From Physcomitrium patens (taxonomy: Eukaryota; Streptophyta; Bryopsida; Funariales; Funariaceae), in assembly GCF_000002425.4 (NCBI RefSeq), contig NC_037258.1, positions 16,720,004-16,784,003 of the forward strand: 64,000 bases of DNA, written 5' to 3'. The notes under the pieces were generated by a model, which had not been told where the DNA came from, made no database searches, and worked only from the letters and a program-made list of their open reading frames with translations. The first letter of the stretch is position 1. Each line of letters starts with the position of its first letter. Below, one piece after another: positions 1 to 31,777 of the stretch. Position numbers and translations under genes: made by a program.

Positions 1-1536
1 GCATTGATTTGCCCTTATCTTTTGTCTCCTTTGTTTTTTCTCCCATGATGCTGAAGTATCCTTTACAGGCAATTCTTGTGAAGCTGCCTCCCGAGCCTTG
101 TCTCTTCGAGTTTACCTCTTAAAAGAATTTCCTTCTCTAGTATCATCAAAATTTCCTCGTCTTTTTTCTTCCATCAAAGCTTCATGTTGGCTTTTAGCAA
201 TATATGCATGAACTGAAAGAGACTCAACAGGATCCTCCCAACCTGTTCTTCCTCGTATTGTAGCTGCAGTTCTCAATAACGCTTCTCGAGGTAATTTCCC
301 TTCTTGCATTGTAGAAACGGCAGAAGCCCAAAACTCACTAGTTTCCGTACTCCCACCAATTTCATCCTCTACTCTAGCACCATAACTTGCACTTTCTCGT
401 ACTACTGTTTCATGCTCTTTTAAGTAATCTTGAACCAATGCTCTCATTCCTCCCTTGCCAAAATTGGTTTGAAGAAGATCCTCCTTATCTTTCAATGCTA
501 TCTTCCCATCTTTCCAGCAAATAATTCCCTGCCGTATCATATTATTAAATTCATTGCAATCTTTTCTAGTGTGTGAAGCATCATCACACCAAATGCATCT
601 TTGTACATATCCTTGTTTTGAAACATTCTTCGAATTGTTTATAGAAGTATTCTCTTCAAGTCTTGCCAATTTGATTTGAAGATCTCGCATTCCTCGTATA
701 ATTTCTTCCATCCCCATATCTGCTTTCTTTGACAAGGATGTCGAAGGTTGAACTGTAGGCATTGTCGGTGGTGTTGTACGTACTGGAGCTTTGGGTGCTT
801 GTACTGTTTTCGGGATATTGCTCCTATCCTTCCTCCTTTCTTTTTTTGTAAGCAACCCCACCGCATCTTCAACGTTCTTCCACTTCGTTGTCAATCCTTC
901 ATCTTCTTCTTTGTCTTCAAGAAGGGGTTCTAATTTCTCTTGCAATTCTCCATCAGCAGCTTGAAGAAATAGATCAACTTTGTTCGGCTCCAATGTCAAT
1001 TTTTCTACCTTCGATAATTGAGAGTACTGCCTCTCAAATTCCCTTAGTAGCTCTGTTGCTTGCAAATTCTTATTGGGCCGTTCAATCCATCCCAGAAACA
1101 GCTTCTTAGTAACGCGATCAGCATCTTCCAAGAAATATTCGTCTTTCAATGCATGTGAAAAATCCTCCCATGAATTCCCACAACGATTCGTAATCGATGT
1201 AATGTGGTCCCTTATCTCCGATATCGTGGCAAGTCCAAATAGTGCAACCATTTTTCTCTCACAAACCCGATTTAATTCCATTTCACGAACATAACATCTT
1301 AAATATCTTGAAATATTCCTCCCATCAAATTGATCAATTTTATTGACCACTGCTTGCAATGCTTTGGTTGCCAAAGATTCCTTTCGATCATTGCTTTGTT
1401 GTTGCTGCATTGACAATGAGAAGGCTTGAAACAAACTAGCAATAGACGGATCCATGTGCATACCTTGTCCTTTAGAAGACTCCCCACCAGAAATTTCTCC
1501 CAAAAATCCTTCAAAATTTTTATTTTCGTTTTCCAT
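1..1536 (-). CDS. Gag polyprotein of a Ty3/gypsy-type LTR retrotransposon, running off the window
   Basis: An open frame of 474 codons runs from ATG at 1536 down to a TAA at 112-114. The product is a retrotransposon capsid/nucleocapsid precursor. Visible parts are a Gln-rich N-terminus (around residue 45), a helical capsid-like middle with LREFERQYSQL, a basic/proline-rich linker and one CCHC zinc knuckle, CIWCDDASHTRKDC, with exact C-x2-C-x4-H-x4-C spacing. The start lies about 70 bp inside the primer-binding site, as expected for gag. After the TAA the same frame stays open for 37 codons to the window edge (111-1), so gag and the next domain may be separated by one stop codon. Gag is intact, so this is one of the youngest insertions here. 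Pol lies outside the window. I am sure of gag and less sure of the lineage. Confidence 0.8.
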
Positions 1537-7703: not shown

Positions 7704-7830
7704 GTACTTCTAAAATATTAGAGATCGATCGTCTTTTGGATACGATCGAATATGCCGATAGGCATGCAACCACGGCATAATCTAACTTTGTCGATGCTTC
7801 TTTTTCAATTTGGCGTTACACATTTTTCAT

Positions 7831-8040
7831 GTATATGAGCTTCAATTATTAGGATCACACAATTAACCACTACTGCTGAATGCTTATCATATCGACAAAT
7901 ACTTAACTTTTCCTCCTATTGTCCACTTATTCATATCAATACGATAACAACCACGACATTAATTTTAGTACCCTGTGTAATTCACAAATACACAAGCATA
8001 ATCCAAACCTTGGAATGAACAACTTCAAGTCCACAAATTT
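7831..8040 (-). repeat. Partial second copy of LTR sequence inside the leader
   Basis: These 210 bp repeat 8323-8535 of the adjacent LTR in the same orientation, 492 bp apart (shared blocks include GAGCTTCAATTATTAGGATC and CAAACCTTGGAATGAACAAC). Between the copies lie the LTR end, primer site and start of the leader. A regular element has no LTR piece here, so this is a local duplication or partial second insertion. The copies differ at about one base in ten to fifteen by eye. Confidence 0.75.
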
Positions 8041-8225
8041 GGCGTTAGACAACAAATTTTTTGCTTGCGATGTCTCTGTTCTTTCCTTTGATTCCTTTAT
8101 TCTCTTTGCTGTTAAATTCTCATTTTTAATAACCATACTCTTTCATTATTTCTATTGAGTTTGCTTCCTAATCTCCTTTACTACTTTGGCGGTTAATTCC
8201 TAACACTCAATAATGTTGTCAATCT

Positions 8226-8243
8226 ATGGCAGTGGCGCCAAAA
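8226..8243 (-). promoter_or_regulatory. Primer-binding site, TTTTGGCGCC type
   Basis: On the minus strand TTTTGGCGCCACTGCC follows directly after LTR end ...AATCACA. The same motif at 35730 (plus strand) reads TTTTGGCGCCGCTGTT and is followed by a homologous leader, which supports both assignments. TGGCGCC-type sites are known from Athila/Tat-like plant gypsy elements. Confidence 0.75.
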
Positions 8244-8997
8244 TGTGATTGTCGTTTTACTTATTCCAAAAGAAACCTCCCAGAATAAACCCATATAAGA
8301 GAATTCGAATACAGGAAAAGACCATGTATATGAGCTTCAATTATTAGGATCACATAATTAACCGCTACTGCTGAATGCTTATCATACCAATAAATACTTA
8401 ACTTTTCTTCCTATTGTCCACTCTCTCATATCAATATGATAACAACCACGACATTAATTTCAGTACCTTGTGTAATTCACAAATACACAAGCATAATCCA
8501 AACCTTGGAATGAACAACTTTAAATCCACAGATTTTGATTGAGACAATTCTTTCGATTACAATTTCTCTCCACTGAACTTACAACCTTATGATAAACATT
8601 GACTGGAAACTTCCATACATCATCAATCTTTTACAATAATTGATAAACAGTGATCCATAAATAACTTCGTAAATCAAACATTGATTTATTAAATCGATTC
8701 TCTTCACTAGAATCAACACTAACACATAAGAAACAAGAAAATTAAGAAGAAGAGATAGCACCAAGCTTATCTCTGGCTCAATATTATCGCAGTCTGGCAT
8801 TTTTTTCCTCTCTCCCATCCTCCTTATACTACCCCGAGATACCAACTCCTATATTACAGATGATAACTATTTTTCCTCACTATTCATCCATTCTACCTGT
8901 TGAACCACATTTTTAGCAGTTATCTATCCATATTTACACTATATACTAGGTATTCACATTCTAAAAATAACTACTTATTCTACAATCTGACAGAACA
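8244..8997 (-). repeat. 5' LTR (about 754 bp) of the Athila/Tat-like element
   Basis: The inner end is fixed by the primer site: the minus strand ends ...GACAATCACA at 8244. The outer end is placed at TGTTCTGTC (8997) by comparison with the related plus-strand LTR at 34930-35729. Shared blocks include ATAAGCTTGGTGCT. The outer border is uncertain by some tens of bases. No protein is encoded; the 88-codon frame inside is a chance frame. Confidence 0.6.
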
Positions 8998-10696: not shown

Positions 10697-10708
10697 CACT
10701 CTTGTCAA
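10697..10708 (-). promoter_or_regulatory. Putative self-primer binding site (diverged copy)
   Basis: On the minus strand TTGACAAGAGTG lies 2 nt after the LTR end. It is the exact reverse complement of CACTCTTGTCAA (minus strand, plus coordinates 10876-10887) in the LTR, 31 nt below TATATAT. The copy at 18804 has the same spacing and pairing, so the arrangement has been kept although the flanking leader has changed. Confidence 0.6.
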
Positions 10709-10710
10709 AC

Positions 10711-11258
10711 TGTCAAGGACATGAATCTTGAAAAATTGGAATCCTCAATACACTCTTCTATCACTAAAGAGAACTAGAAAGTCGCTCAAAAAGTAATGTA
10801 ATATTAACTAGAATGGCTATTGCCAAAAACAAAAACATAAGAAAGTCTTGAAATAAGACTAAGACTAGAAAGGCATTGACAAGAGTGAAGAAGGCTTCAC
10901 TCTTGCCTCCATATATACTATCTAACAAAGAGCCACGTGGTGATGTTCTATAGGACCTCCAATATGTGTTGACTTTGCTAGCCACATGTCTTATCTTGCA
11001 AGGCAAGTTATCTATGTATGCACCACGTAGTTGACTTGTTCCACAAGCTACTACACAGAGGTTACTTGTTCCATAAGCTACCAATACATGGTTAGCTTTT
11101 TGGCCAAGTTTCTAACCTACGAACACATCTGTAGTCAAAACCACGTCTATAAAGCTTCTAGGAAGCTTCTCTAGAAGACATTATGAAATTATTCTATTTT
11201 ATCTACTTCTACTTAATCATATAAGTAACTATTGACGTAAATATATATGTCTATGACA
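10711..11258 (-). repeat. 5' LTR (548 bp) of the diverged Tcn1-like element
   Basis: Starts TGTCATAGAC at 11258 and ends TGTCCTTGACA at 10711 on the minus strand, against TGTCACGGCC...GTCCTTGACA in the 552-bp LTRs of the composite. The central part is clearly homologous (AGTCAACACATATTGGAGGT, the TATA box at 10911-10917, and the hairpin GCAAGAGTGAAG/CTTCTTCACTCTTG). Overall divergence is large, so this is an older family member. Confidence 0.75.
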
Positions 11259-14765: not shown

Positions 14766-15060
14766 TTTTTTGTCATAAAATATGGATCTTATTGATCTTA
14801 TTGTCATCTAATTTCTAATCATATCAATTAAATCTTAAACATATTATCTTAAATCCTAGATACATCATCTAATCTTGATCATATTGTATTAATTCTAATT
14901 ATAAACTTTTTTCTAGTATTAAGCCATCTTATTATTAAACAAGATAAGAAAATCTTATCAAAAACTAATGTACATCTTATTGAGATAATATAATCTAATG
15001 AAGACTATTCAAATACAAATTTATCATCCAACCATCAAGTATCACTAGTAATTCTATATA
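14766..15060. other. AT-rich spacer, nothing recognised
   Basis: About 300 bp of AT-rich DNA with short repeats of ATTGATCTTATTG and ATCTAATC. I see no coding frame, LTR end or RNA gene. Confidence 0.5.
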
Positions 15061-15690
15061 TTAACCTTTAAAGTCTATAATATCTTTTTTGAGATAGGAA
15101 CTTAATCCAATTGGCACAAATGACAAGCTTGAATACTTTATTATATATAAGGTAGTAAAAGATGTGAGATTATCTAATTTATTTGGAAATGATGTCAAAC
15201 TTGAGCATTCACTTATATCTAAATTAATCAAAGATGTGAGGTTGTCCAATTCATTTAGCAATGATGTCAAGCTTAAATATCCACTTATATAAAAGGTAGT
15301 CAAAGATGTAAGGTTTCTAAATTCATTTGATAATGATGTTGAGCTTAAGCACATACTTATATCAAAGTTAGTAAAAGTTGTGAAATAATCTAATTCATTT
15401 GGCAATGATATCAAGCTAGAACACCTACTTATATAAAAAGTAGTCAAAGATGTGAGATTATCCAATTCAATTGATAATAATATCAAGCTGAAGTATTTAC
15501 ATATATTTAAGGTAGTCAAAGATGTAAAGTTGCTTAATTCATTTGGCAATGATGTCAAGCTTGAGCATTCACTTATATTAAAGTTAGTTAAAGTTATAAA
15601 ATAATTTAATTCATTTAGCAATCATATCAAGCTTAAGCACTCACTTATATCAAAGCTAATCAAAGATATGAGGTTTTTTATGCCTTTTAG
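15061..15690 (-). pseudogene. Leucine-rich-repeat gene fragment
   Basis: The open frame 15621-15061 (186 codons) is made only of 24-residue leucine-rich repeats with consensus LTSLTTLNISECSSLTSLPN and a following EL-DN. About eight repeats are visible, and 15690-15622 adds one more beyond an in-frame TGA. The repeat class is found in plant LRR proteins, including resistance-like proteins, and in several early land plants. No NB-ARC, kinase, signal peptide or membrane segment flanks it, and both sides are transposon debris, so it is a stranded piece of a larger gene. Repeats differ by several residues each, pointing to relaxed selection. It may have been carried in by a transposon or left by deletion; the sequence does not decide. 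Confidence 0.75.
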
Positions 15691-16108
15691 ATAATAATTA
15701 AGTAGAATTAATCAATTAATTAATTATCTTGTAAGAATTTGTATATTTGTTATAATTAGTTAAGTACAATTATTAAGGTAGGGATTCATTGCTAAGCAAC
15801 GAAGGTTCTGTTGTGAAATAAGACTGAACTATCGATGGGTGTCAAACTCTTGGCCTATGTTACTTGTAGCCACATACAAGTAACTCTACCTCTTGCAATG
15901 TTATCCCTTATAATGTTTCTTCGCTAAGGTGGTATCAGCAGCATTGACATCACAAGTAAAAATATGTAAAGTTGACTTGAACTGAACTTCAGGTAGATGC
16001 ATACTTTCTGAAGCTTCCTAAGATAGACCACTTCTTCACGGTGTCGAAGCCAAACTGGAACTATATGGAATCAGGCAGAGAGAACCCAAATATCAATTCA
16101 TGCAAAGG
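15691..16108 (+). other. Possible LTR end, primer site and leader of a copia-like element
   Basis: TGGTATCAGCAGC at 15930 resembles the initiator-methionine tRNA primer site of plant LTR elements (TGGTATCAGAGC), and TGTAAGAATTTG at 15731 could open an LTR of about 200 bp. The sequence after the site (about 16030-16100) translates to a short run like a copia gag start (FTVSKPNWNYME). The LTR end before the site lacks CA, so the assignment is weak. Confidence 0.3.
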
Positions 16109-18803: not shown

Positions 18804-19355
18804 TGTCACGGCCATAATCATGTAAGCTAATAATTACATATAGAAATAGGTAGAAGTAAGTAAAAGTAGATAAAAGTAAGTTAATTCAATAATATTTAAT
18901 ATAGAAGCTTCCTAAAAACTTTCTAGACACTGCTTTGACTTCATAGATTTCTTTAATTGACTTTTTGGATTAGAAACGTGGTCAACAAGTTGGCCATGTG
19001 CCACACATGTTGTTAACTTGAAGATCAAGCTAACTATGTTGCCCACATGTAGAAAAACTTGCCTTGTAAGTCAAGGCATGTGTCCTACAAAGTCAACACA
19101 TATTGGAGGTCCTATAGAACGTCGCCACGTAGCCCCTAGTTAGATAGTATATATAGAGACAAGAGTGAAGGCTTCTTCACTCTTGTCAACTCCTTTCTTG
19201 CTTCTAGTCCAAGTTCAAGAGTCTTTAGTTTCTTGTCTTGTGGCAATAGCCATTCCAGTTTCTTTTTAATATACATACTTGTTTATATTTTGACTTATTA
19301 TATCGAGATAGCTTTTTTGTGTATATTTTCCCTAATCGAGTCTTTGTCCTTGACA
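18804..19355 (+). repeat. LTR of copy A (552 bp)
   Basis: TGTCACGG...TCCTTGACA. By my count it differs from the LTR of copy C at about 5 positions and from the 3' LTR (31226-31777) at about 18. The right end is set by the 3' LTR, which leaves homology after CTTGACA at the same base and enters host DNA. The LTR carries a TATA box and a hairpin around the predicted transcript start. Confidence 0.85.
19148..19189 (+). promoter_or_regulatory. LTR core promoter: TATA box, hairpin and predicted transcript start
   Basis: TATATATA at 19148-19155 is followed by GACAAGAGTGAA (19158-19169) and its perfect inverted copy TTCACTCTTGTC (19176-19187) with a 6-nt loop. A CA initiator at 19178/19179 lies 31 nt from the TATA start, so the RNA would begin ACTCTTGTCAA. 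The same block occurs in copy C (25751-25792), in the 3' LTR (31568-31611) and in the diverged LTR at 10876-10917. Confidence 0.65.
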
Positions 19356-19357
19356 AA

Positions 19358-19368
19358 TTGACAAGAGT
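19358..19368 (+). promoter_or_regulatory. Putative self-primer binding site of copy A
   Basis: TTGACAAGAGT lies 2 nt past the LTR end and is the exact reverse complement of the predicted first 11 nt of the element RNA (19179-19189). In Tf1-type elements an 11-nt RNA 5' end pairs with such a site to prime reverse transcription. Copy C has the same site at 25961-25971. Confidence 0.6.
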
Positions 19369-19566
19369 ACACTTACAATATCAGAGCTTTGTTTTTCTTG
19401 AGTAAGAGTGGATTATCTCTTTCTCTTGACAAGACATAAGCGTATTAGAAGTTTGCGGATTATCCACTTCTAAACTGATATTGTTCTTAGTATCTTCTTT
19501 GTTATCAAGTCTTTCTTTTCTTTTGTCTTGAGCAGTATCAAACAAATTTTTCTTCTTAGTGTCATT

Positions 19567-20571
19567 ATGGCAAAGCTTGTTGAAATGAAGAGTGCAATGG
19601 CACAAATGCAAGAGCAAATGAGGGAGTTAATGCTTGCGATGCATCAACTCAATTCACCAACACAGGAAAGAATAAGAATAGCAGAAAGTGGAGATATAGA
19701 GATGATCGGAGCTACTTCAACATCTGCAACAAATCACGTTCCTTCCCCAATTGTACAACACCCTGTAAGCACTAGAGAACCAAGAATTACCTTACCCGAG
19801 AAATTTGATGGTACGAGATCAAAGTTTCGAGGGTTCATCAATCAAGTACAATTGGCAATTGAACTTCAACCGCAAAGCTATCCAACTCCAAGATCACAAG
19901 TCAAGTTTATTAGCACTCTACTTTCTGGTTCTACATTATCATGGTTTTCGTCTTTTCTTGAACAACGAAATCCAATATTGGACAATTTGGAAGCTTTTTT
20001 GGTGGAGTTTCGATCTATGTATGGTGAACACGATGCAACTCCTGTTGCAACAAATAAGATCCAAATTCTACGATAAGGAAATCGCTCTGTAACAGTGTAT
20101 GCTTCACAATTTCGACAACTTGCAATTAACATCAAGTGGGATGATGCTGCAGTCATCAGTCAATTTCTTTATGGATTGCAATACGAAGTAAAGAAATTGA
20201 TGCTCAACTTACCTGATCCTCAAACTTTGAGTCAAGCAATCGATTTTGCGGTAAAATGTGATAATCAACTTTTCAAATTTCGATCCGAAAATTATTTACG
20301 AGAACCTCAACGTTATTACTCAATGGCAACATCAACATCTTTGCCAAACGTACATTCGGAAGTAGAAGACATGCAAATTGACGCAGTACATTTTAAACCC
20401 CTAACTGAGCAAGAAAAGATTCATCGTCATCAAGAAGGATTATGTTTATATTGCGGAGAACCTAAGCACACTGCTCAACATTGTCCAAACAAACAACGCA
20501 ACTATAAAATGAGGGGTACGGCGGTCAAAGAAGACAACATGTCAGAAAACGGATTCGTCCAGCTACAATAG
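19567..20571 (+). pseudogene. Gag of copy A, one in-frame stop
   Basis: The frame of 334 codons from ATG 19567 to TAG 20571 is broken only by TAA at 20074. The N-terminus is a coiled coil (MKSAMAQMQEQMRELM), followed by LPEKFDGTRSKFRGFINQ, the capsid signature of Tf1/sushi/Tcn1 elements. RSVTVYASQFRQLA follows the stop, and the C-terminus has a CCHC knuckle CLYCGEPKHTAQHC (20443-20484). The upstream in-frame ATG at 19528 is possible, but 19567 starts the conserved part. The stop stands where a Gln codon (CAA) is expected. Gag forms virus-like particles and packages RNA in this family. Confidence 0.85.
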
Positions 20572-21882
20572 GGACCGTGCAGCTGGAACCTTGTACAATT
20601 CCTAATGAAGGTCCTATCCTCTCCTCAGAACCCTTTCCTTGTTTTATAATAGACTTATATTTAGGACCTAAGAATTATAAAGCCTGTGCTTTATTAGATT
20701 CGGGAGCCTCTGCATGTTTTTTAGATGAACAATTTGTTAAAAGTCGTAAAATACTTTTTGTACAGAAACCTAAACTAGTACATGTAGAAGTCATAGATGG
20801 TCGTCCCTTGTCTTCTGGAGATGTCACTCATGAAACTCATCTTATAAAAGTAACAATAGATGGTCATGATAGCTACATAGCTTTTAACATAATTAAATCC
20901 CCATCCAATCCAGTTATTTTAGGTTTATCCTGGCTAGAAAAATATAACCCTCAAATAGATTGGAATTCGCATAAACTTGACTTTTTCCATAGCGTTATTA
21001 ATAATTCTACCAACCAAGTAAAAAATTATAAGTCTAGTATAGTAAAACCCGCACTGCTAGGTGCAAAAGCATTTATACACGCAGCAAAAGAAGGATCAAC
21101 TTTTGCTATTTATGCTGCACCTATTTCTGAAAACGTAAAGACTTCAAGTGGTATTCCAAATCAATATCAGGAGTATCAAGACGTTTTTGAGAAAAAGAAT
21201 GCAGATATTCTTCCTGAGCATCGCCCATATGATTGTTCAATCGACTTCAAGGAAAGAACTCAGCCACCATTTGGACCAATTTACAGTTTATCGCAAGATG
21301 AGATGGCTGAACTCAAGACATATATTGACGAGAATTTAGCGAAGAATTTCATACGCCATTCAAAATCTCCAGCAGGAGCTCCAATTCTATTTGTAAAGAA
21401 AAAAGATGGATCTTTACGAATGTGTGTTGATTATGGAGGACTCAACAAGATCACAATCAAGAATAAGTATCCATTACCTTTGATATCATGACTCCTTGAC
21501 CAGTTGAATCAAGCTAAGATCTATACAAAAATAGATCTAAGGGGAGCATATAATCTAGTACGGATCAAAGAAGGAGATGAATGGAAGACTGCGTTTCGAA
21601 CCAGGTATGGACTTTTTGAATATAATGTCATGCCCTTTGGACTCACGAATGCACCAGTTGCTTTTCAACATCTCATGAATGATGTATTTCGTGAATTCTT
21701 AGATAATTTTGTCGTCTGCTATCTAGACGATATCCTGATCTATTCTAAGAACGTCGAAGAACATGAAATACATGTTCGTCAAGTATTACAAAAACTTAGA
21801 GATGCAGGATTGTACGCCAAGATAGAAAAGTGTGTATTTCACACTACTCAAGTTGACTTTTTAGGATACATCATTTCAAATT
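20544..21882 (+). pseudogene. Protease and 5' RT part of pol, copy A, truncated
   Basis: Pol lies in the -1 frame relative to gag and overlaps its end by about 30 nt. It holds the retropepsin box [16 protein letters not shown], then [11 protein letters not shown], the RT start [19 protein letters not shown], a shared TGA at 21489 (PLIS*LLDQL), the palm [20 protein letters not shown] and the catalytic YLDD. Coding ends at about 21882 in the connection region ([10 protein letters not shown]), where the sequence switches to the inverted copy B through the 6 bases TCAAAT. Confidence 0.85.
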
Positions 21883-24800
21883 CTTCAGTATTATCTACTT
21901 CTATAGGAGGCGGTGGTATTTGTCTTCTTCCTTGTATATCCACTGTCTTATATGGTTCAAGAAGAGACACGTGGAATATTGGATGGATCTTCATTGACTC
22001 CGATAGATGTAACCGATATGCAACTGGGTTGATCTGTTCAGAAACAGAAAAGGGGCCAAGCTTACGATAGTCCAACTTGTCACAAGGTCGAATAGTCTTG
22101 ATATTGCGACGAAGTAGCCATACCTTATCACCCACGTTGAGTTGTGGTTGCTCCTTACGATATAGATCTGTGTTTATCTTTTGTCGTTCTTGAGCTTCCT
22201 TCAATTGCGTCTTCATTATTGCATGTAACTCTGACAACCGATTTGCCATATCTTCTGCTGCAGGATTATCAACTTTTGAAAAATCAAAAGTATCAAGTCG
22301 TGGATGATAGCCATAATTGGCAAAGAAAGGTGTTTGTTGCATGGAAGAATGTACCGTATTATTATAAGTAAACTCTGCCAATGGCAGAAGGGTTGTCCAA
22401 TCATCTTGTTGGTAGTTGATAGTACACCTTAAATATTGCTCCAAGACTTGATTTACGCGCTCTGTTTGTCCATCAGTTTGAGGATGGAAAGCCGAAGATA
22501 GCTTTATGTCCACTTTTAAAATCTTGAAAAGGGTCCTCTAGAATCTTGACACAAATTGAGTTCTCCTATCCGATATGATATCTTTAGGTAATCCATGATA
22601 GCGATAGATATTATCAATGAAAAGCTTAGCTGTTTCTTCACCTGTGATAGATTTTGTACATGGCACAAAATGTGTCATCTTGGTGAAACGATCTACTATC
22701 ACAAATATAGAATCATAAGATCTTGAGCTTAGAAGATCTGTGATGAAATCCATAGAAACAGAAGACCATGGTTGTTCTGGTATAGGTAATGGCTGAAGAA
22801 GTCCGTAAGGTCGATGACGAGGAATTTTTGATCTTGAACAAATATCACAAGATTGTACAAAGTCTTTGACTGACTTCCACATTTGTGGCCACTAAAAATC
22901 TCTTGATATGAGTTTCAAAGTCTTATTATATCCAAAGTGCCCTACTGCTAGAAAGTCATGACGTGCTTGAAGAACACGTAAACGTGCTTCTCTTTTTGGA
23001 ACATATAGGCGTCCTTCAAAATATAATAGATTATTCTTGAACTCAAACTTAGAAGGATCATGAGACTTGGAAGAATTATTCTCGATATCATGAACAAGAG
23101 GGTCTGAGGACATACTGGACTGGATTTGCTTGAGAAAAGTTGAATCAACAGTCAATGTTGATTTCATTGCTCGGAGATGAAATTGCTCCGATTTCAAGAG
23201 GACCGTTCTTTGTTGCTCAAAAGTTGCATCTCCTTCTTTTAGTGCAAAATAAGAATGTCTAGATAGGGCATCGGACAAACCTTGTTGTTTTCCTGGCGGA
23301 TAAGTGATAATGAACTCGAATCTTGACAAAGACATACTCCAACGAGCTTGACGACGATTCAACACGCATGTTGACATGAAATACTCGAGGTTCTTGTGAT
23401 CTGTATACACAGTGACTGGACTAGAAGCGCCTTCTAGATAATGACGCCATTCTTGAAAGGAATCCACGATCGTAAGAAGTTCTTTATCGTAGATCTCATA
23501 ATTGATCTCGACTGTTGAGAATTTTCTTGAATGAAAAGCTATCGGATGAAGTTTGTCATCTGATCCCATTTGTGATAAAATTGCACCCAAGGCAAAATCT
23601 GATGCATCTGTTTCCATAAAAAATGCCTTCGAAAAGTCAGCACGATATAAGACTGGTGCAGAGACAAATGATGTCTTCAAGGCTTCAAATGCTGCTTCCG
23701 CTTTTTGATTCCATTGGAATTTATCTTTACTAGACAAGCGTGTAAGTGGAGTTGCAACTCATGAGAAATCTTTGATGAAGATCCGATAGTAATTGGCAAA
23801 TCCCAAAAAACATTGGACATCTCTTATTGTTCTTGGAATCTTCCAATCCATGATTGTTTGGACTTTCTTAGAATCCATCATGAGACCATTATTTGAAATG
23901 ATGTATCCTAAAAAGTCAACTTGAGTAGTGTGAAATATACACTTTTCTATCTTGGCGTACAATCCTGCATCTCTAAGTTTTTGTAATACTTGACGAACAT
24001 GTATTTCATGTTCTTCGACGTTCTTAGAATAGATCAGGATATCGTCTAGATAGCAGACGACAAAATTGTCTAAGAATTCACGAAATACATCATTCATGAG
24101 ATGTTGAAAAGCAACTGGTGCATTCGTGGGTCCAAAGGGCATGACATTATATTCAAAAAGTCCATACCTGGTTCAAAACGCAGTCTTCCATTCATCTCCT
24201 TTTTTGATCCGTACTAGATTATATGCTCCCCTTAGATCTATTTTTGTATAGATCTTAGCTTGATTCAACTGGTCAAGGAGTCATGATATCAAAGGTAATG
24301 GATACTTATTCTTGATTGTGATCTTGTTGAGTCCTCCGTAATCAACACACATTCGTAAAGATCCATCTTTTTTCTTTACGAATAGAATTGGAGCTCCTGC
24401 TGGAGATTTTGAATGGCGTATGAAATTCTTCGCTAAATTCTCGTCAATATATGTCTTGAGTTCAGCCATCTCATCTTGCGATAAACTGTAAATTGGTCCA
24501 AATGGTGGCTGAGTTCTTTCCTTGAAGTCGATTGAACAATCATATGTGCGATGCTCAGGAAGAATATCTGCATTCTTTTTCTCAAAAACGTCTTGATACT
24601 CCTGATATTGATTTTGAATACCACTTGAAGTCTTTACGTTTTCAGAAATAGGTGCAGCATAAATAGCAAAAGTTGATCCTTCTTTTGCTGCGTGTATAAA
24701 TGCTTTTGCACCTAGCAGTGCGAGTTTTACTATACTAGACTTATAATTTTTTACTTGGTTGGTAGAATTATTAATAACGCTATGGAAAAAGTCAAGTTTA

Positions 24801-25407
24801 CATGAATTCCAATCTATTTGAAGGTTATATTTTTCTAGCCAGGATAAACCTAAAATAACTCGATTGGACGGGGATTTAATTATGTTAAAAGCTATGTAGC
24901 TATCATGACCGTCTATTGTTACTTTTATAGGATGAGTTTCATGAGTGACATCTCCAAAAGACAAGGGACGACCATCTATGACTTCTACATGTACTAGTTT
25001 AGGTTTCTGTACAAAAAGTATTTTACGACTTTTAACAAATTGTTCATCTAAAAAACATGCAGAGGCTCCCGAATCTAATAAAGCACAGGCTTTGTAATTC
25101 TTAGGTCCTAAATATAAGTCTATTATAAAACAAGGAAAGGATTCAAAGGAGAGGATAGGACCTTCATTAGAAATTGTACAAGGTTCCAGCTGCACGGTCC
25201 CTATTGTAGCTGGACAAATCCGTTTTCCCACATGTTGTCTTCTTTGACCGCCATACCCCTCATTTTATAGTTGCGTCGTTTCTTTGGACAATGTTGAGTA
25301 GTGTGCTTAGCTTCTCCGCAATATAAACATAATCCTTCTTGATAACGATGAATCTTTTCTTGCTCAGTTAGGGGTTTAAAACGTACCACGTCAATTTGCA
25401 TGTCTTC
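21877..25407 (-). pseudogene. Inverted copy B: integrase back to gag, no LTRs
   Basis: Minus-strand order: gag end with zinc knuckle CLYCGEAKHTTQHC (25401-25201), protease and RT (25231-23759), RNase H (23737-22892), integrase (22882-21877, ending just before the chromodomain). It spans element positions 1562-5091 with no indels visible. It shares four stops with C (24281, 23759, 22892, 22538) and has a private CGA-to-TGA stop at 24173-24175 in RT (AFRTRYG region). It has no LTR, no own target duplication and both its ends fall inside coding sequence, so it did not arrive by integration. Confidence 0.85.
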
Positions 25408-25408
25408 A

Positions 25409-25958
25409 TCACGGCCATGATCATGTAAGCTAATAATTACATATAAAAATAGGTAGAAGTAAGTGAAAGTAGATAAAAATAAGTTAATTCAATAATATTT
25501 AATATAGAAGCTTCCTAAAAACTTTCTAGACACTGCTTTGACTTCATAGATTTCTTTAATTGACTTTTTGGATTAGAAACGTGGTCAACAAGTTGGCCAT
25601 GTGCCACACATGTTGTTAGCTTGAAGATCAAGCTAACTATGTTGCCCACATGTAGAAAAACTTGCCTTGTAAGTCAAGGCATGTGTCCTACAAAGTCAAC
25701 ACATATTGGAGGTCCTATAGAACGTCGCCACGTAGCCCCTAGTTAGATAGTATATATAGAGACAAGAGTGAAGGCTTCTTCACTCTTGTCAACTCCTTTC
25801 TTGCTTCTAGTCCAAGTTCAAGAGTCTTTAGTTTCTTGTCTTGTGGCAATAGCCATTCCAGTTTCTTTTTAATATACATACTTGTTTATATTTTGACTTA
25901 TTATATCGAGATAGCTTTTTTGTGTATATTTTCCCTAATCGAGTCTTTGTCCTTGACA
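25409..25958 (+). repeat. Left LTR of copy C, lacking its first two bases
   Basis: Begins TCACGGCC without the TG of the LTR start and directly follows the gag end of copy B with one extra A. It ends CTTGACA at 25958, followed by the self-primer site (25961-25971). A missing TG and missing target duplication show that this LTR was joined by rearrangement. Confidence 0.8.
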
Positions 25959-26169
25959 AATTGACAAGAGTACACTTACAATATCAGAGCTTTGTTTTTC
26001 TTGAGTAAGAGTGGATTATCTCTTTCTCTTGACAAGACATAAGCGTATTAGAAGTTTGCGGATTATCCACTTCTAAACTGATATTGTTCTTAGTATCTTC
26101 TTTGTTATCAAGTCTTTCTTTTCTTTTGTCTTGAGCAGTATCAAACAAATTTTTCTTCTTAGTGTCATT

Positions 26170-27174
26170 ATGGCAAAGCTTGTTGAAATGAAGAGTGCAA
26201 TGGCACAAATGCAAGAGCAAATGAGGGAGTTAATGCTTGCGATGCATCAACTCAATTCACCAACACAAGAAAGAATAAGAATAGCAGAAAGTGGAGATAT
26301 AGAGATGATCGGAGCTACTTCAACATCTGCAACAAATCACGTTCCTTCCCCAATTGTACAACACCCTGTAAGCACTAGAGAACCAAGAATTACCTTACCC
26401 GAGAAATTTGATGGTACGAGATCAAAGTTTCGAGGGTTCATCAATCAAGTACAATTGGCAATTGAACTTCAACTGCAAAGCTATCCAACTCCAAGATCAC
26501 AAGTCAAGTTTATTAGCACTCTACTTTCTGGTTCTACATTATCATGGTTTTCGTCTTTTCTTGAACAACGAAATCCAATATTGGACAATTTGGAAGCTTT
26601 TTTGGTGGAGTTTCGATCTATGTATGGTGAACACGATGCAACTCCTGTTGCAACAAATAAGATCCAAATTCTACGATAAGGAAATCGCTCTGTAACAGTG
26701 TATGCTTCACAATTTCGACAACTTGCAATTAACATCAAGTGGGATGATGCTGCACTCATCAGTCAATTTCTTTATGGATTGCAATACGAAGTAAAGAAAT
26801 TGATGCTCAACTTACCTGATCCTCAAACTTTGAGTCAAGCAATCGATTTTGCGGTAAAATGTGATAATCAACTTTTCAAATTTCGATCCGAAAATTATTT
26901 ACGAGAACCTCAACGTTATTACTCAATGGCAACATCAACATCTTTGCCAAACGTACATTCGGAAGTAGAAGACATGCAAATTGACGCAGTACATTTTAAA
27001 CCCCTAACTGAGCAAGAAAAGATTCATCGTCATCAAGAAGGATTATGTTTATATTGCGGAGAACCTAAGTACACTGCTCAACATTGTCCAAACAAACAAC
27101 GCAACTATAAAATGAGGGGTACGGCGGTCAAAGAAGACAACATGTCAGAAAACGGATTCGTCCAGCTACAATAG
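26170..27174 (+). pseudogene. Gag of copy C, one in-frame stop
   Basis: Same architecture as the gag of copy A: 334 codons, TAA at 26677-26679 at the identical place. A private C-to-T change (CAC to TAC at 27070) turns the zinc-binding His of the knuckle into Tyr (GEPKYTAQHC), which should destroy zinc binding. The stop shared with A predates the duplication. Confidence 0.85.
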
Positions 27175-30100
27175 GGACCGTGCAGCTGGAACCTTGTACA
27201 ATTCCTAATGAAGGTCCTATCCTCTCCTCAGAACCCTTTCCTTGTTTTATAATAGACTTATATTTAGGACCTAAGAATTATAAAGCCTATGCTTTATTAG
27301 ATTCGGGAGCCTCAGCATGTTTTTTAGATGAACAATTTGTTAAAAGTCGTAAAATACTTTTTGTACAGAAACCTAAACTAGTACATGTAGAAGTCATAGA
27401 TGGTCGTCCCTTGTCTTCTGGAGGTGTCACTCATGAAACTCATCTTATAAAAGTAACAACAGATGGTCATGATAGCTACATAGCTTTTAACATAATTAAA
27501 TCCTCATCCAATCCAATTATTTTAGGTTTATCCTGGCTAGAAAAATATAACCCTCAAATAGATTGGAATTCGTATAAACTTGACTTTTTCCACAGCGTTA
27601 TTAATAATTCTACCAACCAAGTAAAAAATTATAAGTCTAGTATAGTAAAACCCGCACTGCTAGGTGCAAAAGCATTTATACACGTAGCAAAAGAAGGATC
27701 AACTTTTGCTATTTATGCTGCACCTATTTCTGAAAACGTAAAGACTTCAAGTGGCATTCCAAACCAACATCAGGAGTATCAAGACGTTTTTGAGAAAAAA
27801 AATACAGATATTCTTCCTGACCATCGCCCATATGATTGTTCAATCGACCTCAAGGAAGGAACTCAGCCAACATTTGGACCAATTTACAGTTTATCGCAAG
27901 ATGAGATGGTTGAACTCAAGACATATATTCACAAGAATTTAACGAAGAATTTCATATGCCATTCAAATCTCCAGCAGGAGCTCCAATTCTATTCGTAAAG
28001 AAAAAAGATGGATCTTTACGAATGTGTGTTGATTATGGAGGACTCAACAAGATCACAATCAAGAATAAGTATCCATTACCTTTGATATCATGACTCCTTG
28101 ACCAGTTGAATCAAGCTAAGATCTATACAAAAATAGATCTAAGGGGAGCATATAATCTAGTACGGATCAAAGAAGGAGATGAATGGAAGACTGCGTTTCG
28201 AACCAGGTATGGACTTTTTGAATATAATGTCATGCCCTTTGGACTCACGAATGCACCAGTTGCTTTTCAACATCTCATGAATGATGTATTTCGTGAATTC
28301 TTAGATAATTTTGTCGTCTGCTATCTAGACGATATCCTGATCTATTCTAAGAACGTCGAAGAACATGAAATACATGTTCGTCAAGTATTACAAAAACTTA
28401 GAGATGCAGGATTGTACGCCAAGATAGAAAAGTGTATATTTCACACTACTCAAGTTGACTTTTTAGGATACATCATTTCAAATAATGGTCTCATGATGGA
28501 TTCTAAGAAAGTCCAAACAATCATGGATTGGAAGATTTCAAGAACAATAAGAGATGTCCAATGTTTTTTGGGATTTGCCAATTACTATCGGATCTTCATC
28601 AAAGATTTCTCATGAGTTGCAACTCCACTTACACGCTTGTCTAGTAAAGATAAATTCCAATGGAATCAAAAAGCGGAAGCAGCATTTGAAGCCTTGAAGA
28701 CATCATTTGTCTCTGCACCAGTCTTATATCGTGCTGACTTTTCGAAGGCATTTTTTATGGAAACAGATGCATCAGATTTTGCCTTGGGTGCAATTTTATC
28801 ACAAATGGGATCAGATGACAAACTTCATCCGATAGCTTTTCATTCAAGAAAATTCTCAACAGTCGAGATCAATTATGAGATCTACGATAAAGAACTTCTT
28901 ACGATCGTGGATTCCTTTCAAGAATGGCGTCATTATCTAGAAGGCGCTTCTAGTCCAGTCACTGTGTATACAGATCACAAGAACCTCGAGTATTTCATGT
29001 CAACATGCGTGTTGAATCGTCGTCAAGCTCGTTGGAGTATGTCTTTGTCAAGATTCGAGTTCATTATCACTTATCCGCCAGGAAAACAACAAGGTTTGTC
29101 CGATGCCCTATCTAGACATTCTTATTTTGCACTAAAAGAAGGAGATGCAACTTTTGAGCAACAAAGAACGGTCCTCTTGAAATCGGAGCAATTTCATCTC
29201 CGAGCAATGAAATCAACATTGACTGTTGATTCAACTTTTCTCAAGCAAATCCAGTCCAGTATGTCCTCAGACCCTCTTGTTCATGATATCGAGAATAATT
29301 CTTCCAAGTCTCATGATCCTTCTAAGTTTGAGTTCAAGAATAATCTATTATATTTTGAAGGACGCCTATATGTTCCAAAAAGAGAAGCACGTTTACGTGT
29401 TCTTCAAGCACGTCATGACTTTCTAGCAGTAGGGCACTTTGGATATAATAAGACTTTGAAACTCATATCAAGAGATTTTTAGTGGCCACAAATGTGGAAG
29501 TCAGTCAAAGACTTTGTACAATCTTGTGATATTTGTTCAAGATCAAAAATTCCTCGTCATCGACCTTACGGACTTCTTCAGCCATTACCTATACCAGAAC
29601 AACCATGGTCTTCTGTTTCTATGGATTTCATCACAGATCTTCTAAGCTCAAGATCTTATGATTCTATATTTGTGATAGTAGATCGTTTCACCAAGATGAC
29701 ACATTTTGTGCCATGTACAAAATCTATCACAGGTGAAGAAACAACTAAGCTTTTCATTGATAATATCTATCGCTATCATGGATTACCTAAAGATATCATA
29801 TCGGATAGGAGAACTCAATTTGTGTCAAGATTCTAGAGGACCCTTTTCAAGATTTTAAAAGTGGACATAAAGCTATCTTCGGCTTTCCATCCTCAAACTG
29901 ATGGACAAACAGAGCACGTAAACCAAGTCTTGGAGCAATATTTAAGGTGTACTATCAACTACCAACAAGATGATTGGACAACCCTTCTGCCATTGGCAGA
30001 GTTTACTTATAATAATACGGTACATTCTTCCATGCAACAAACACCTTTCTTTGCCAATTATGGCTATCATCCACGACTTGATACTTTTGATTTTTCAAAA

Positions 30101-30667
30101 GTTGATAATCCTGCAGCAGAAGATATGGCAAATCGGTTGTCAGAGTTACATGCAATAATGAAGACGCAATTGAAGGAAGCTCAAGAACGACAAAAGATAA
30201 ACACAGATCTATATCGTAAGGAGCAACCACAACTCAACGTGGGTGATAAGGTATGGCTACTTCGTCGCAATATCAAGACTATTCGACCTTGTGACAAGTT
30301 GGACTATCGTAAGCTTGGCCCCTTTTCTGTTTCTGAACAGATCAACCCAGTTGCATATCGGTTACATCTATCGGAGTCAATGAAGATCCATCCAATATTC
30401 CACGTGTCTCTTCTTGAACCATATAAGACAGTGGATATACAAGGAAGAAGACAAATACCACCGCCTCCTATAGAAGTAGATAATACTGAAGAATTTGAGG
30501 TGGAAGAGATATTAGACTCAAGGTGGCGCGGAAATAAGCTGGAATATCTTGTTCATTGGCGCGGATATGATATTAGTGAATGCACATGGGAGCCATCCAG
30601 GAATCTAGCAAATGCATCAGCTATAGTCAAAGTTTTTTATCAACGACATCCATCGAAACTAAAATGA
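27147..30667 (+). pseudogene. Full-length pol of copy C (protease-RT-RNase H-integrase-chromodomain)
   Basis: About 1170 codons. Domains: retropepsin [10 protein letters not shown] (27295), RT with [18 protein letters not shown] and YLDD (28322-28333), RNase H with DASDFALGAILSQ (28764) and VYTDHKNLEYF (28965). The integrase has a His-Cys zinc domain (H at about 29437, C..C in SCDICSRSK at 29523) and a DDE core in SMDFITDLL, SDRRTQF and HPQTDGQTEH. The C-terminus is a chromodomain, VEEILDSRWRGNKLEYLVHW then RGYDISECTWEP (30499-30606), which in this class binds methylated histone H3. Broken by stops at 28091, 28613, 29480 and 29834 and by a private 1-nt deletion near 27965. It would otherwise end at TGA 30665. 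Confidence 0.88.
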
Positions 30668-30761
30668 AAATCTCTCTTATAAAAGAGACAAGATTGAGGC
30701 AAGATAACATTCAATTTCCTATCCTTGTTTGTAACTTCTTTGCATTTGTGACGCTAATTAG

Positions 30762-31184
30762 ATGGAGAGCCAACAACCAGTGGATTCAACTCAAGAACCT
30801 TCGTTTACTGACCTGCAGGACGAGACATTACGATTGTCACAACCTTCAAGACGACGCAATCGAGATGAATATCTTCAAGAACGACATGTTCTTCCTCGAA
30901 TAGATGGTGAGATACAACGCGTTTGGTATCACGATTTGAGAAGGGACTCCCGATGTTTGGTGATTTTGCTAGAGGTAGAAACAACTCCTCATGCTGTTCC
31001 AAATATTCTATTCGAAGGAAGTTACGAAGGCCTCAAGAATGATCAAATAACTGGGTGATCTTTCCACCCTGGTATGGGACACTACCGATGGTTGAGAGGG
31101 CCTATCAATCATCTTCGAAGAAAACAAAGATCAGAGTATGTAGCGAATACAATTCGTCGCATCATAGATTTCCTCAACATATGA
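30762..31184 (+). pseudogene. Extra reading frame between chromodomain and polypurine tract
   Basis: A 140-codon frame starts with ATG at 30762 (MESQQPVDSTQEPS) and ends at TGA 31182-31184, interrupted once by TGA at 31056-31058. The predicted protein is hydrophilic and Arg-rich (QPSRRRNRDEYLQER; RWLRGPINHLRRKQRSEY), with a central WYHDLRRDSRCLVILLEVE stretch. I do not recognise it. It lies 94 bp past the pol stop, in another frame, on the sense strand, and fills almost all of the space to the polypurine tract. Chance cannot be excluded for so short a frame, but its one stop is of the same CGA-to-TGA kind as those in pol. Copies A and B do not reach this region, so it cannot be compared here. 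Confidence 0.45.
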
Positions 31185-31208
31185 AGACCGCTCCTCATGG
31201 AACTCGTC

Positions 31209-31225
31209 TCTAGAAGGGGGGGTAA
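31209..31225 (+). promoter_or_regulatory. Polypurine tract before the 3' LTR
   Basis: AGAAGGGGGGGTAA directly precedes TGTCACGG of the 3' LTR, as expected for the plus-strand primer of an LTR retrotransposon. Confidence 0.75.
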
Positions 31226-31777
31226 TGTCACGGCCATAATCATGTAAGCTAATAATTACATATAGAAATAGGTAGAAGTAAGTAAAAGTAGATAAAAATA
31301 AGTTAATTCTATAATATTTAATATAAAAGCTTCCTAGAAACTTCTTAGACGCTGCTTTGACTTCATAGGTGTCTTTAATTGACTTTTTGGATTAGAAACG
31401 TGGTCAACAAGTTGGCCATGTGCCACACATGTTGTTAGCTTGAAGATCAAGCTAACTATGTGGCCCACATGTAGAAAAACTTACCTTGTAAGTCAAGGCA
31501 TGTGTCCTACAAAGTCAACACATATTGGAGGTCCTATAGAACGTCGCCACGTAGCCCCTAGTTAGATAGTATATATAGAGACAAGAGTGAAGGCTTCTTC
31601 ACTCTTGTCAACTTCTTTCTTGCTTCTAGTCCAGGTTCAAGAGTCTTTAGTTTCTTGTCTTGTGGCAATAGCCATTCAAGTTTCTTTTTAATATACCTAC
31701 TTGTTTATATTTTGACTTATTATATCGAGATAGCCTTTTTGTGTATATTTTCCCTCATCGAGTTTTTGTCCTTGACA
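31226..31777 (+). repeat. 3' LTR of the composite (552 bp)
   Basis: TGTCACGG...GTCCTTGACA, same length as the LTR of copy A. It keeps the TATA box, the hairpin and the CACTCTTGTCAA start. Followed by CCAGC and then by gag sequence of the split older element. By count it is about 3% different from the LTR of copy A. Confidence 0.85.

What the first reader, a model, noticed from the sequence alone, without database searches (positions are those of the whole stretch)
19148..19368. A plant chromodomain retrotransposon that appears to prime itself like Tf1
The sequence shows TATATATA (19148), a CA initiator 31 nt later (19179) and then ACTCTTGTCAA. TTGACAAGAGT (19358-19368), its exact reverse complement, lies 2 nt after the LTR end. 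The diverged copy on the other strand (10697-10917) keeps all of it: 31-nt TATA-to-start distance, 2-nt spacer and perfect pairing (12 nt), while the sequence after the site has changed. Tf1-type elements prime with an 11-nt RNA 5' end paired to such a site. Gag signature and chromodomain agree with the Tf1/sushi/Tcn1 group. Self-priming in this plant-borne group is my inference.
Basis: partly seen in the sequence, partly recalled or inferred. Interest (0 to 1): 0.82.

Follow-up and report, generated by a model that had tools for sequence, protein, structure and literature searches.

The report
Self-priming moss retrotransposon, two primer sites
A moss jumping gene appears to start its own DNA copying with the first 11 letters of its RNA rather than a borrowed tRNA, and a sister family seems to do so although it also carries an intact tRNA landing site beside it.

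Summary
A chromodomain Gypsy element has TATATATA at 19148, a CA start at 19178-19179, and an 11-nt R start whose exact reverse complement lies 2 nt after the LTR end; the diverged minus-strand copy shows the same. Self-priming is well supported, by sequence only. A sister family (64% identical over 174 aa of integrase) has changed three of the 11 R positions and exactly their three partners in the primer site, and LTRs end just before this site. The idea is not new: Neumann et al. 2019 (PMC6317226) predicted self-priming for most moss and club-moss Tcn1 elements. Two features go beyond the finding. A 13-bp hairpin spans the U3/R border, co-varies with R in several subtypes, and in folding hides the 3' LTR copy of the primer sequence. 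And 304 genome places (100 listed, all alike) carry an intact 12-nt plant tRNA-iMet site about 10 nt behind the self site, yet a search for LTRs ending at that tRNA site found none. The window's copies keep 9 nt of it. A within-family covariation test was not significant (p = 0.31), and no RNA data were available.

The parts
18804..19355 (+). LTR A (TG..CA, 552 bp) of the + strand element
   Evidence: matches 31226-31777 at 96.6%; preceded by CCAAC
31226..31777 (+). LTR C, outer 3' LTR; fixes the LTR end at ..TTGACA
   Evidence: followed by CCAGC, a 4-of-5 match to the CCAAC before LTR A
25407..25958 (+). LTR B, middle LTR; its first two bases are CA, not TG
19148..19155 (+). TATA box (TATATATA), 31 nt before the proposed start
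   Evidence: same spacing in groups A, D and F
19158..19187 (+). 13-bp inverted repeat with 4-nt loop over the U3/R border; its U3 arm (19158-19170) repeats 9 nt of the primer site
   Evidence: co-variation
19179..19189 (+). Proposed RNA 5' end and self primer ACTCTTGTCAA
19358..19368 (+). Self-priming site TTGACAAGAGT, 2 nt after the LTR end
19379..19387 (+). TATCAGAGC, 9 nt of the 12-nt plant tRNA-iMet primer site TGGTATCAGAGC
25782..25792 (+). Second copy of the R start, in LTR B
25961..25971 (+). Second copy of the self-priming site, after LTR B
31601..31611 (+). R start in the 3' LTR, inside the hairpin that begins at 31580
26077..30667 (+). Interrupted coding region: gag (DUF4939/Retrotrans_gag), protease, RT, RNase H, integrase, SH3_Tf2-1, chromodomain
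   Evidence: frames broken, described only
10876..10886 (-). R start of the diverged minus-strand copy (D)
10698..10708 (-). Self-priming site of copy D (12 nt pair if 10697 is included)
10878..10907 (-). Hairpin over the U3/R border of copy D

Best explanation
These are chromodomain Gypsy (Tcn1-like) retrotransposons of a moss, probably Physcomitrium patens, that prime minus-strand DNA synthesis with the first 11 nt of their own RNA. The RNA starts at A 19179, folds so that ACUCUUGUCAA pairs with the site 2 nt after the LTR end, the element's RNase H would cut after nt 11, and the 11-mer is extended back through U5 and R. Shown by sequence: the site, its position, its conservation, its co-change in a sister family, and LTR ends consistent with initiation there. 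Inferred: the start site, the RNase H cut and the extension. A second inferred step: a hairpin formed only when U3 is present hides the R copy at the 3' end, leaving only the true 5' end free to prime. The nearby tRNA-iMet-like site is not the primer site.
For: (1) The pairing begins 2 nt after the LTR end and runs to the start expected from the TATA box. (2) 48 of 65 fetched copies pair at 11 of 11, all 65 at 8 or more: A 23 of 25, D 8 of 20, F 17 of 20 perfect. (3) Sister family F (64% identical over 174 aa of integrase; chromodomain) differs from A at R 2, 6, 8 and at site 10, 6, 4, exactly the partners. (4) The A LTR ends at 31777 with a near-match target duplication. (5) 304 places have an intact tRNA-iMet site behind a TGACAG (the 100 listed are F-type); a search for the stretch between the two sites followed by a non-T where TGG begins found 1 match, itself a TGG mutant, so that stretch is not part of the LTR. 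(6) RNA from 19179 folds with the 11-bp duplex (probability above 0.5 in 63 of 68 rows, references included). (7) Hairpin: shuffles, co-variation, masking.
Against: No RNA 5' end or cDNA end was available. A within-family test for linked changes was not significant: matched doubles 75 and 4, unmatched 15 and 12, odds ratio 1.67, p = 0.31; age-related C-to-T decay can explain most doubles. The A-F co-change is one evolutionary split, not many. The 65 copies were taken from the top of similarity lists, which favours intact sites; of 12 copies met in flanking DNA I read 5 as perfect. The 5' limit of the block is not sharp everywhere: the base after the site is a non-pairing A in 24 of 25 A and 19 of 20 F copies, but a pairing G in 20 of 20 D copies and in many listed double-site copies, so a start one base earlier is not excluded there. 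The MFE of copy D folded with its U3 arm lacks the duplex, and 5 of 21 D rows are not above 0.5.
Confidence: 0.87

Rival explanations
1. tRNA-iMet priming at the TATCAGAGC / TGGTATCAGAGC site inside the leader, with the R complementarity incidental.
For: TGGTATCAGAGC is a plant tRNA-Met primer site and is intact at 304 places behind a TGACAG; 9 nt of it persist in the window copies.
Against: Priming there would put the LTR end about 20 nt further in. The LTR ends at 19355/31777, and in the sister family the stretch between the sites was not found as an LTR end (1 match, a TGG mutant; exact form only). The D copies compared lack the motif. The window copies lack TGG, which would pair with CCA.
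Confidence: 0.04
2. The complementarity is a by-product of the hairpin or of repeated LTR-end sequence (TTGACA..TTGACA), with no role in priming.
For: In group A the site begins with the same TTGACA that ends the LTR, and 9 nt of it also occur in the U3 arm.
Against: In family F the LTR ends GTGACA but the site begins TTGTCG, so that repeat is gone while the R pairing persists. The F site follows R, not the U3 arm: in the 21 F1 rows the arm mispairs in register at R 2, 6 and 8.
Confidence: 0.04
3. The hairpin is a palindromic DNA binding site for a transcription factor rather than an RNA mask.
For: It sits between the TATA box and the start, where regulatory sites can lie; perfect palindrome in group A. 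In F1 the hairpin is weak.
Against: G.U-type pairs are common in D (19 of 21 rows at one pair) and in F subtypes (6 of 8 at another), which preserve an RNA helix but not a DNA palindrome.
Confidence: 0.3
4. Chance complementarity.
For: The site is only 11 nt long.
Against: 9 of 20,000 simulated LTRs hold the 11-mer anywhere; the three partner changes in F have probability about 6e-5 under independence at 27% divergence (rough).
Confidence: 0.01

Closest known systems
Plant Tcn1-clade chromoviruses of moss and club-moss (Neumann et al. 2019, PMC6317226, passages read)
   Same: Chromodomain Gypsy, non-seed plant, self-priming predicted for the majority; aromatic-cage chromodomain
   Different: The passages read give no sites, no co-change, no hairpin and no second tRNA site; supplements were not open to me
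Tf1 of fission yeast (recalled; mentioned in PMC4600332 passages)
   Same: Self-priming by a 5' segment of its own mRNA; primer of 11 nt next to the LTR end (recalled)
   Different: Experimentally shown there; here by sequence only. Whether Tf1 has a U3/R hairpin or a second tRNA site was not examined
Tj1 of Schizosaccharomyces japonicus (PMC4600332, passages)
   Same: Primer site complementary to the mRNA 5' end
   Different: Fungal; transposition shown
SM-Tcn1 of Selaginella (PMC2864245, passages)
   Same: Tcn1-like plant chromodomain element with a T-rich leader
   Different: Its authors found neither a tRNA site nor self-priming
tRNA-Met-primed plant LTR elements (Jatropha copia, PMC3852365, passages)
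   Same: TGGTATCAGAGC, found intact in the F5 copies here
   Different: There it is the primer site of the element; here it begins 24 nt after the LTR end, behind the self site

Membership tests
Tf1/sushi (Tcn1-like) chromovirus | Gypsy-type protease, RT-RNase H and integrase, related to Ty3 | tested here: met
Tf1/sushi (Tcn1-like) chromovirus | Chromodomain after integrase, with aromatic cage (group I) | tested here: met
   Chromo 3.2e-16 and SH3_Tf2-1 2e-20; F, W, Y at the HP1 cage positions (cage positions recalled)
Tf1/sushi (Tcn1-like) chromovirus | Falls in the Tcn1 clade of an RT/IN tree | not tested
   no reference sequences of the clades were at hand
Self-priming LTR retrotransposon (Tf1 type) | R start complementary to a site next to the LTR end | tested here: met
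Self-priming LTR retrotransposon (Tf1 type) | LTR end where initiation at that site would put it | tested here: met
Self-priming LTR retrotransposon (Tf1 type) | RNA 5' end at the complementary stretch; RNase H cut after nt 11 | not testable with these tools
   no RNA or cDNA data
Self-priming LTR retrotransposon (Tf1 type) | Stem-loop beside the primer duplex like the U5-IR loop (recalled) | tested here: inconclusive
   predicts a 6-bp hairpin at the LTR end; its co-variation was not tested
tRNA-iMet-primed LTR retrotransposon | TGGTATCAGAGC directly at the LTR end | tested here: not met
   window has only TATCAGAGC, beginning 24 nt after the LTR end; F5 has the full site but no LTR ending there was found

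The most novel reading that the evidence does not exclude
This family carries two primer sites in series, a working self site and, 10 nt behind it, a tRNA-iMet site that is intact in hundreds of copies and trimmed to its 9 non-CCA nucleotides in others. It would be either a primer switch caught in progress or a tRNA held for a role other than priming. The U3/R hairpin would be a built-in lock that stops the 3' copy of the primer sequence from capturing the primer site, a problem every self-priming element with terminal R repeats must solve.
Probability: 0.35. Interest if true: 0.8.

Novelty: new variant of a known kind. Interest (0 to 1): 0.57.

Why it matters
The moss genome offers a natural contest: elements with both an apparently usable tRNA site and a self site. 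LTR ends record which one started DNA synthesis, and they point to the self site. That makes the question of how retroelements change primers testable in a laboratory plant. The hairpin, if it acts as proposed, answers how a self-priming RNA with R at both ends avoids pairing its primer site with the wrong end.

Tried and rejected
Within-family linkage of R and site mutations: not significant, reported as such. An architecture scan for further families (324,026 bases, some overlapping): 37 hits, of which I class 29 as family members (A, D or F) and 8 as unrelated, against 9 in reversed sequence; it yielded one new site type (F). A pattern for more site types gave 12 matches, all mutant A sites; (146 matches, 100 listed) gave F subtypes, A mutants, what look like ordinary tRNA-primed elements and unrelated matches, with no third site type that I could recognise among the 100 listed. 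The alignment had wrong coordinates for some rows and the hairpin table was off by one; both discarded, redone. One search failed part-way and was replaced. A typed plant tRNA-iMet gene query did not complete, so the tRNA itself was not read from this genome; the 12-nt site is taken from PMC3852365. Chance, LTR-end repeats and tRNA priming were considered and rejected as stated under rivals.

Literature: searches. The listings (two or tandem primer binding sites; primer switch) show no title or abstract opening about a self site next to a tRNA site; the papers listed there were not opened for it. I did not search for the U3/R hairpin: that search was malformed and not repeated. Papers were read as passages only.

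Full report
What was checked. The finding is exact at the base level. The + strand LTR runs 18804-19355; TATATATA at 19148, R start A 19179, ACTCTTGTCAA 19179-19189, LTR end 19355, spacer AA, site TTGACAAGAGT 19358-19368. The minus-strand copy repeats this with 31-nt spacing, a 2-nt spacer and 12 pairing nt. The 11-mer occurs in 9 of 20,000 first-order Markov simulations of the LTR, without any demand on position.

The element. 18804-31777 is a complex of three direct LTRs. The outer ones are 96.6% identical and flanked by CCAAC and CCAGC, a 4-of-5 target duplication. 25407-31777 has the order gag (DUF4939 6.3e-11; Retrotrans_gag 1.3e-4, below its curated cut-off), protease, RT (9.3e-34), RNase H, integrase, SH3_Tf2-1 (2e-20), chromodomain (3.2e-16), in broken frames. 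RNase H and integrase pieces match Ty3. The chromodomain has F, W and Y at the HP1 cage positions (positions recalled), as reported for 95% of the Tcn1 clade (PMC6317226, passages). The window lies in a 470-Mb assembly of 101 contigs; from size and contig lengths I infer Physcomitrium patens, whose main family RLG1 is a chromodomain Gypsy element (PMC7466625, passages). Organism and family name are inference.

Copies. From the hits of three DNA searches (40 best candidates scored in each) I compared 25 copies near the + strand element (A; the window's own two and one duplicate fetch dropped), 20 near the minus-strand copy (D) and 20 of a sister family (F). R and site pair at 11 of 11 in 23 of 25, 8 of 20 and 17 of 20; the lowest value is 8. 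These copies were the most similar to a query, which favours intact sites: of 12 further copies met in flanking DNA I read 5 as perfect. So the block ends at the proposed start in A and F1 and may run one base further elsewhere.

Co-change. A scan for the architecture alone found F. The coding pieces directly upstream of an F LTR hold integrase core, SH3_Tf2-1 and chromodomain, 64% identical to the window element over 174 aa. Its R start is AGTCTCGACAA and its site TTGTCGAGACT: changes at R 2, 6, 8 and site 10, 6, 4, the exact partners, and no others. Over 75 rows (65 copies, 3 references, 7 more F copies) these pairs read CG 44 / GC 28, TA 47 / CG 28 and TA 45 / AT 28, the rest mismatched. 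Under independence at 27% divergence (the 73% leader identity) this has probability about 6e-5 (rough). It is a single evolutionary split.

A negative test. If each replication cycle rewrites the site from the RNA 5' end, single mutations should be linked inside a family. Matched double mutants numbered 75 and 4, unmatched 15 and 12; odds ratio 1.67, p = 0.31. Post-insertion C-to-T decay can account for most. The test neither shows nor excludes rewriting.

LTR ends decide the initiation site. In self-priming the LTR must end just before the self site; it does. The rival is tRNA-iMet: TATCAGAGC lies 10 nt behind the site in A and 13-14 nt behind in F subtypes, and 304 genome places read TGACAG followed within 12-35 nt by the full TGGTATCAGAGC (backward-pattern control 0). 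Of the 100 listed, 91 keep an intact TTGTCGAGACT, and the linker to the tRNA site is nearly always 10 nt. That 12-mer is a plant tRNA-Met primer site (PMC3852365, passages). If these copies (F5) were tRNA-primed, the linker would close both LTRs and the 3' LTR copies would be followed by other DNA. 87 of the 100 listed rows fit the exact linker form, so with one 3' LTR each I would expect well over a hundred cases with a non-T where TGG begins; the search found 1, itself a TGG mutant. The search sees only the exact linker form. I conclude that the self site was used although a perfect tRNA site was present. Four such copies fetched over the R-to-site range pair at 11 of 11; two further F subtypes (L090, L091) pair at 10, and one double-site copy (L089) has a decayed self site.

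The hairpin. 19158-19187 is a 13-bp inverted repeat over the U3/R border (-21.3 kcal/mol with flanks against a mean of -7.4 for shuffles, 0 of 500 as stable). Its U3 arm repeats 9 nt of the primer site. D copies range from -22.4 to -7.0, some within reach of shuffles (20 of 500 for L061). In 8 F-subtype rows the arm has changed with R: paired 8 of 8 at R 2 and R 6, 6 of 8 at R 8, and in two rows also at a pair outside the primer block (arm 12 with R -3, A-T to G-C). In the 21 F1 rows the arm is one base shorter, 0 of 21 pair in register at R 2, 6 or 8, and the fold uses a bulge (median -11.9; 8 to 35 of 500 shuffles as stable in the four rows tested): a weaker case. G.U-type pairs in D and F favour an RNA role. 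Folding pieces together, the primer site pairs with the 3' R copy at 0.107 without the U3 arm and 0.000 with it; with the 5' R removed, 0.718 falls to 0.000. I propose that the hairpin, which exists only at the RNA 3' end, keeps the 3' R copy from capturing the site. This is inference.

Leader fold. RNA from 19179 forms the 11-bp duplex with a 6-bp hairpin at the LTR end. Across copies the duplex has probability above 0.5 in 26 of 26 A, 16 of 21 D and 21 of 21 F rows, references included. Copy D folded with most of its U3 arm forms the hairpin instead.

What is known. Neumann et al. 2019 state that the majority of Tcn1-clade elements of moss and club-moss lack tRNA sites and are predicted to self-prime (PMC6317226, passages). 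Novikova et al. 2010 found neither mode in Selaginella SM-Tcn1 (PMC2864245, passages). So the mechanism in this clade is a published prediction. The listings showed no paper on the two sites in series; the supplements of PMC6317226 could not be opened, and the library lacks most subscription papers.

Verdict. Observation confirmed, interpretation supported at sequence level and already predicted in print. The tandem sites and the co-varying hairpin are the new part.

Noticed in passing
window 18804-31777: Three direct LTRs, with 21876-25407 an inverted copy of 26968-30498 (98.3%; about 2.5 kb of it nearly identical), all inside one near-match target duplication; LTR B starts CA instead of TG. 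A rearranged single insertion or an assembly artefact.
   Followed up: partly
window 15031-15743: Array of a 72-nt unit (copies about 63-80% identical) next to the minus-strand element, with a 186-aa stop-free frame on the minus strand at 15061-15621.
   Followed up: no
window 19379-19387, 25982-25990: TATCAGAGC conserved behind the self site in A and F subtypes although the linker between differs; absent in the D copies compared.
   Followed up: yes
L043 minus strand, reverse-complement positions 1548-2041: A family F LTR preceded by a polypurine tract and followed by a primer site: apparently two elements in tandem sharing one LTR.
   Followed up: no
L092; places listed: What look like ordinary tRNA-iMet-primed LTR elements (TTTCATTGGTATCAGAGC and alike) in the same genome.
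   Followed up: no
window 7828-8547: Direct repeat of 225 nt, 92% identical, 495 nt apart.
   Followed up: no
window 112-1536: Longest open frame listed in the window (474 aa, minus strand), not examined.
   Followed up: no
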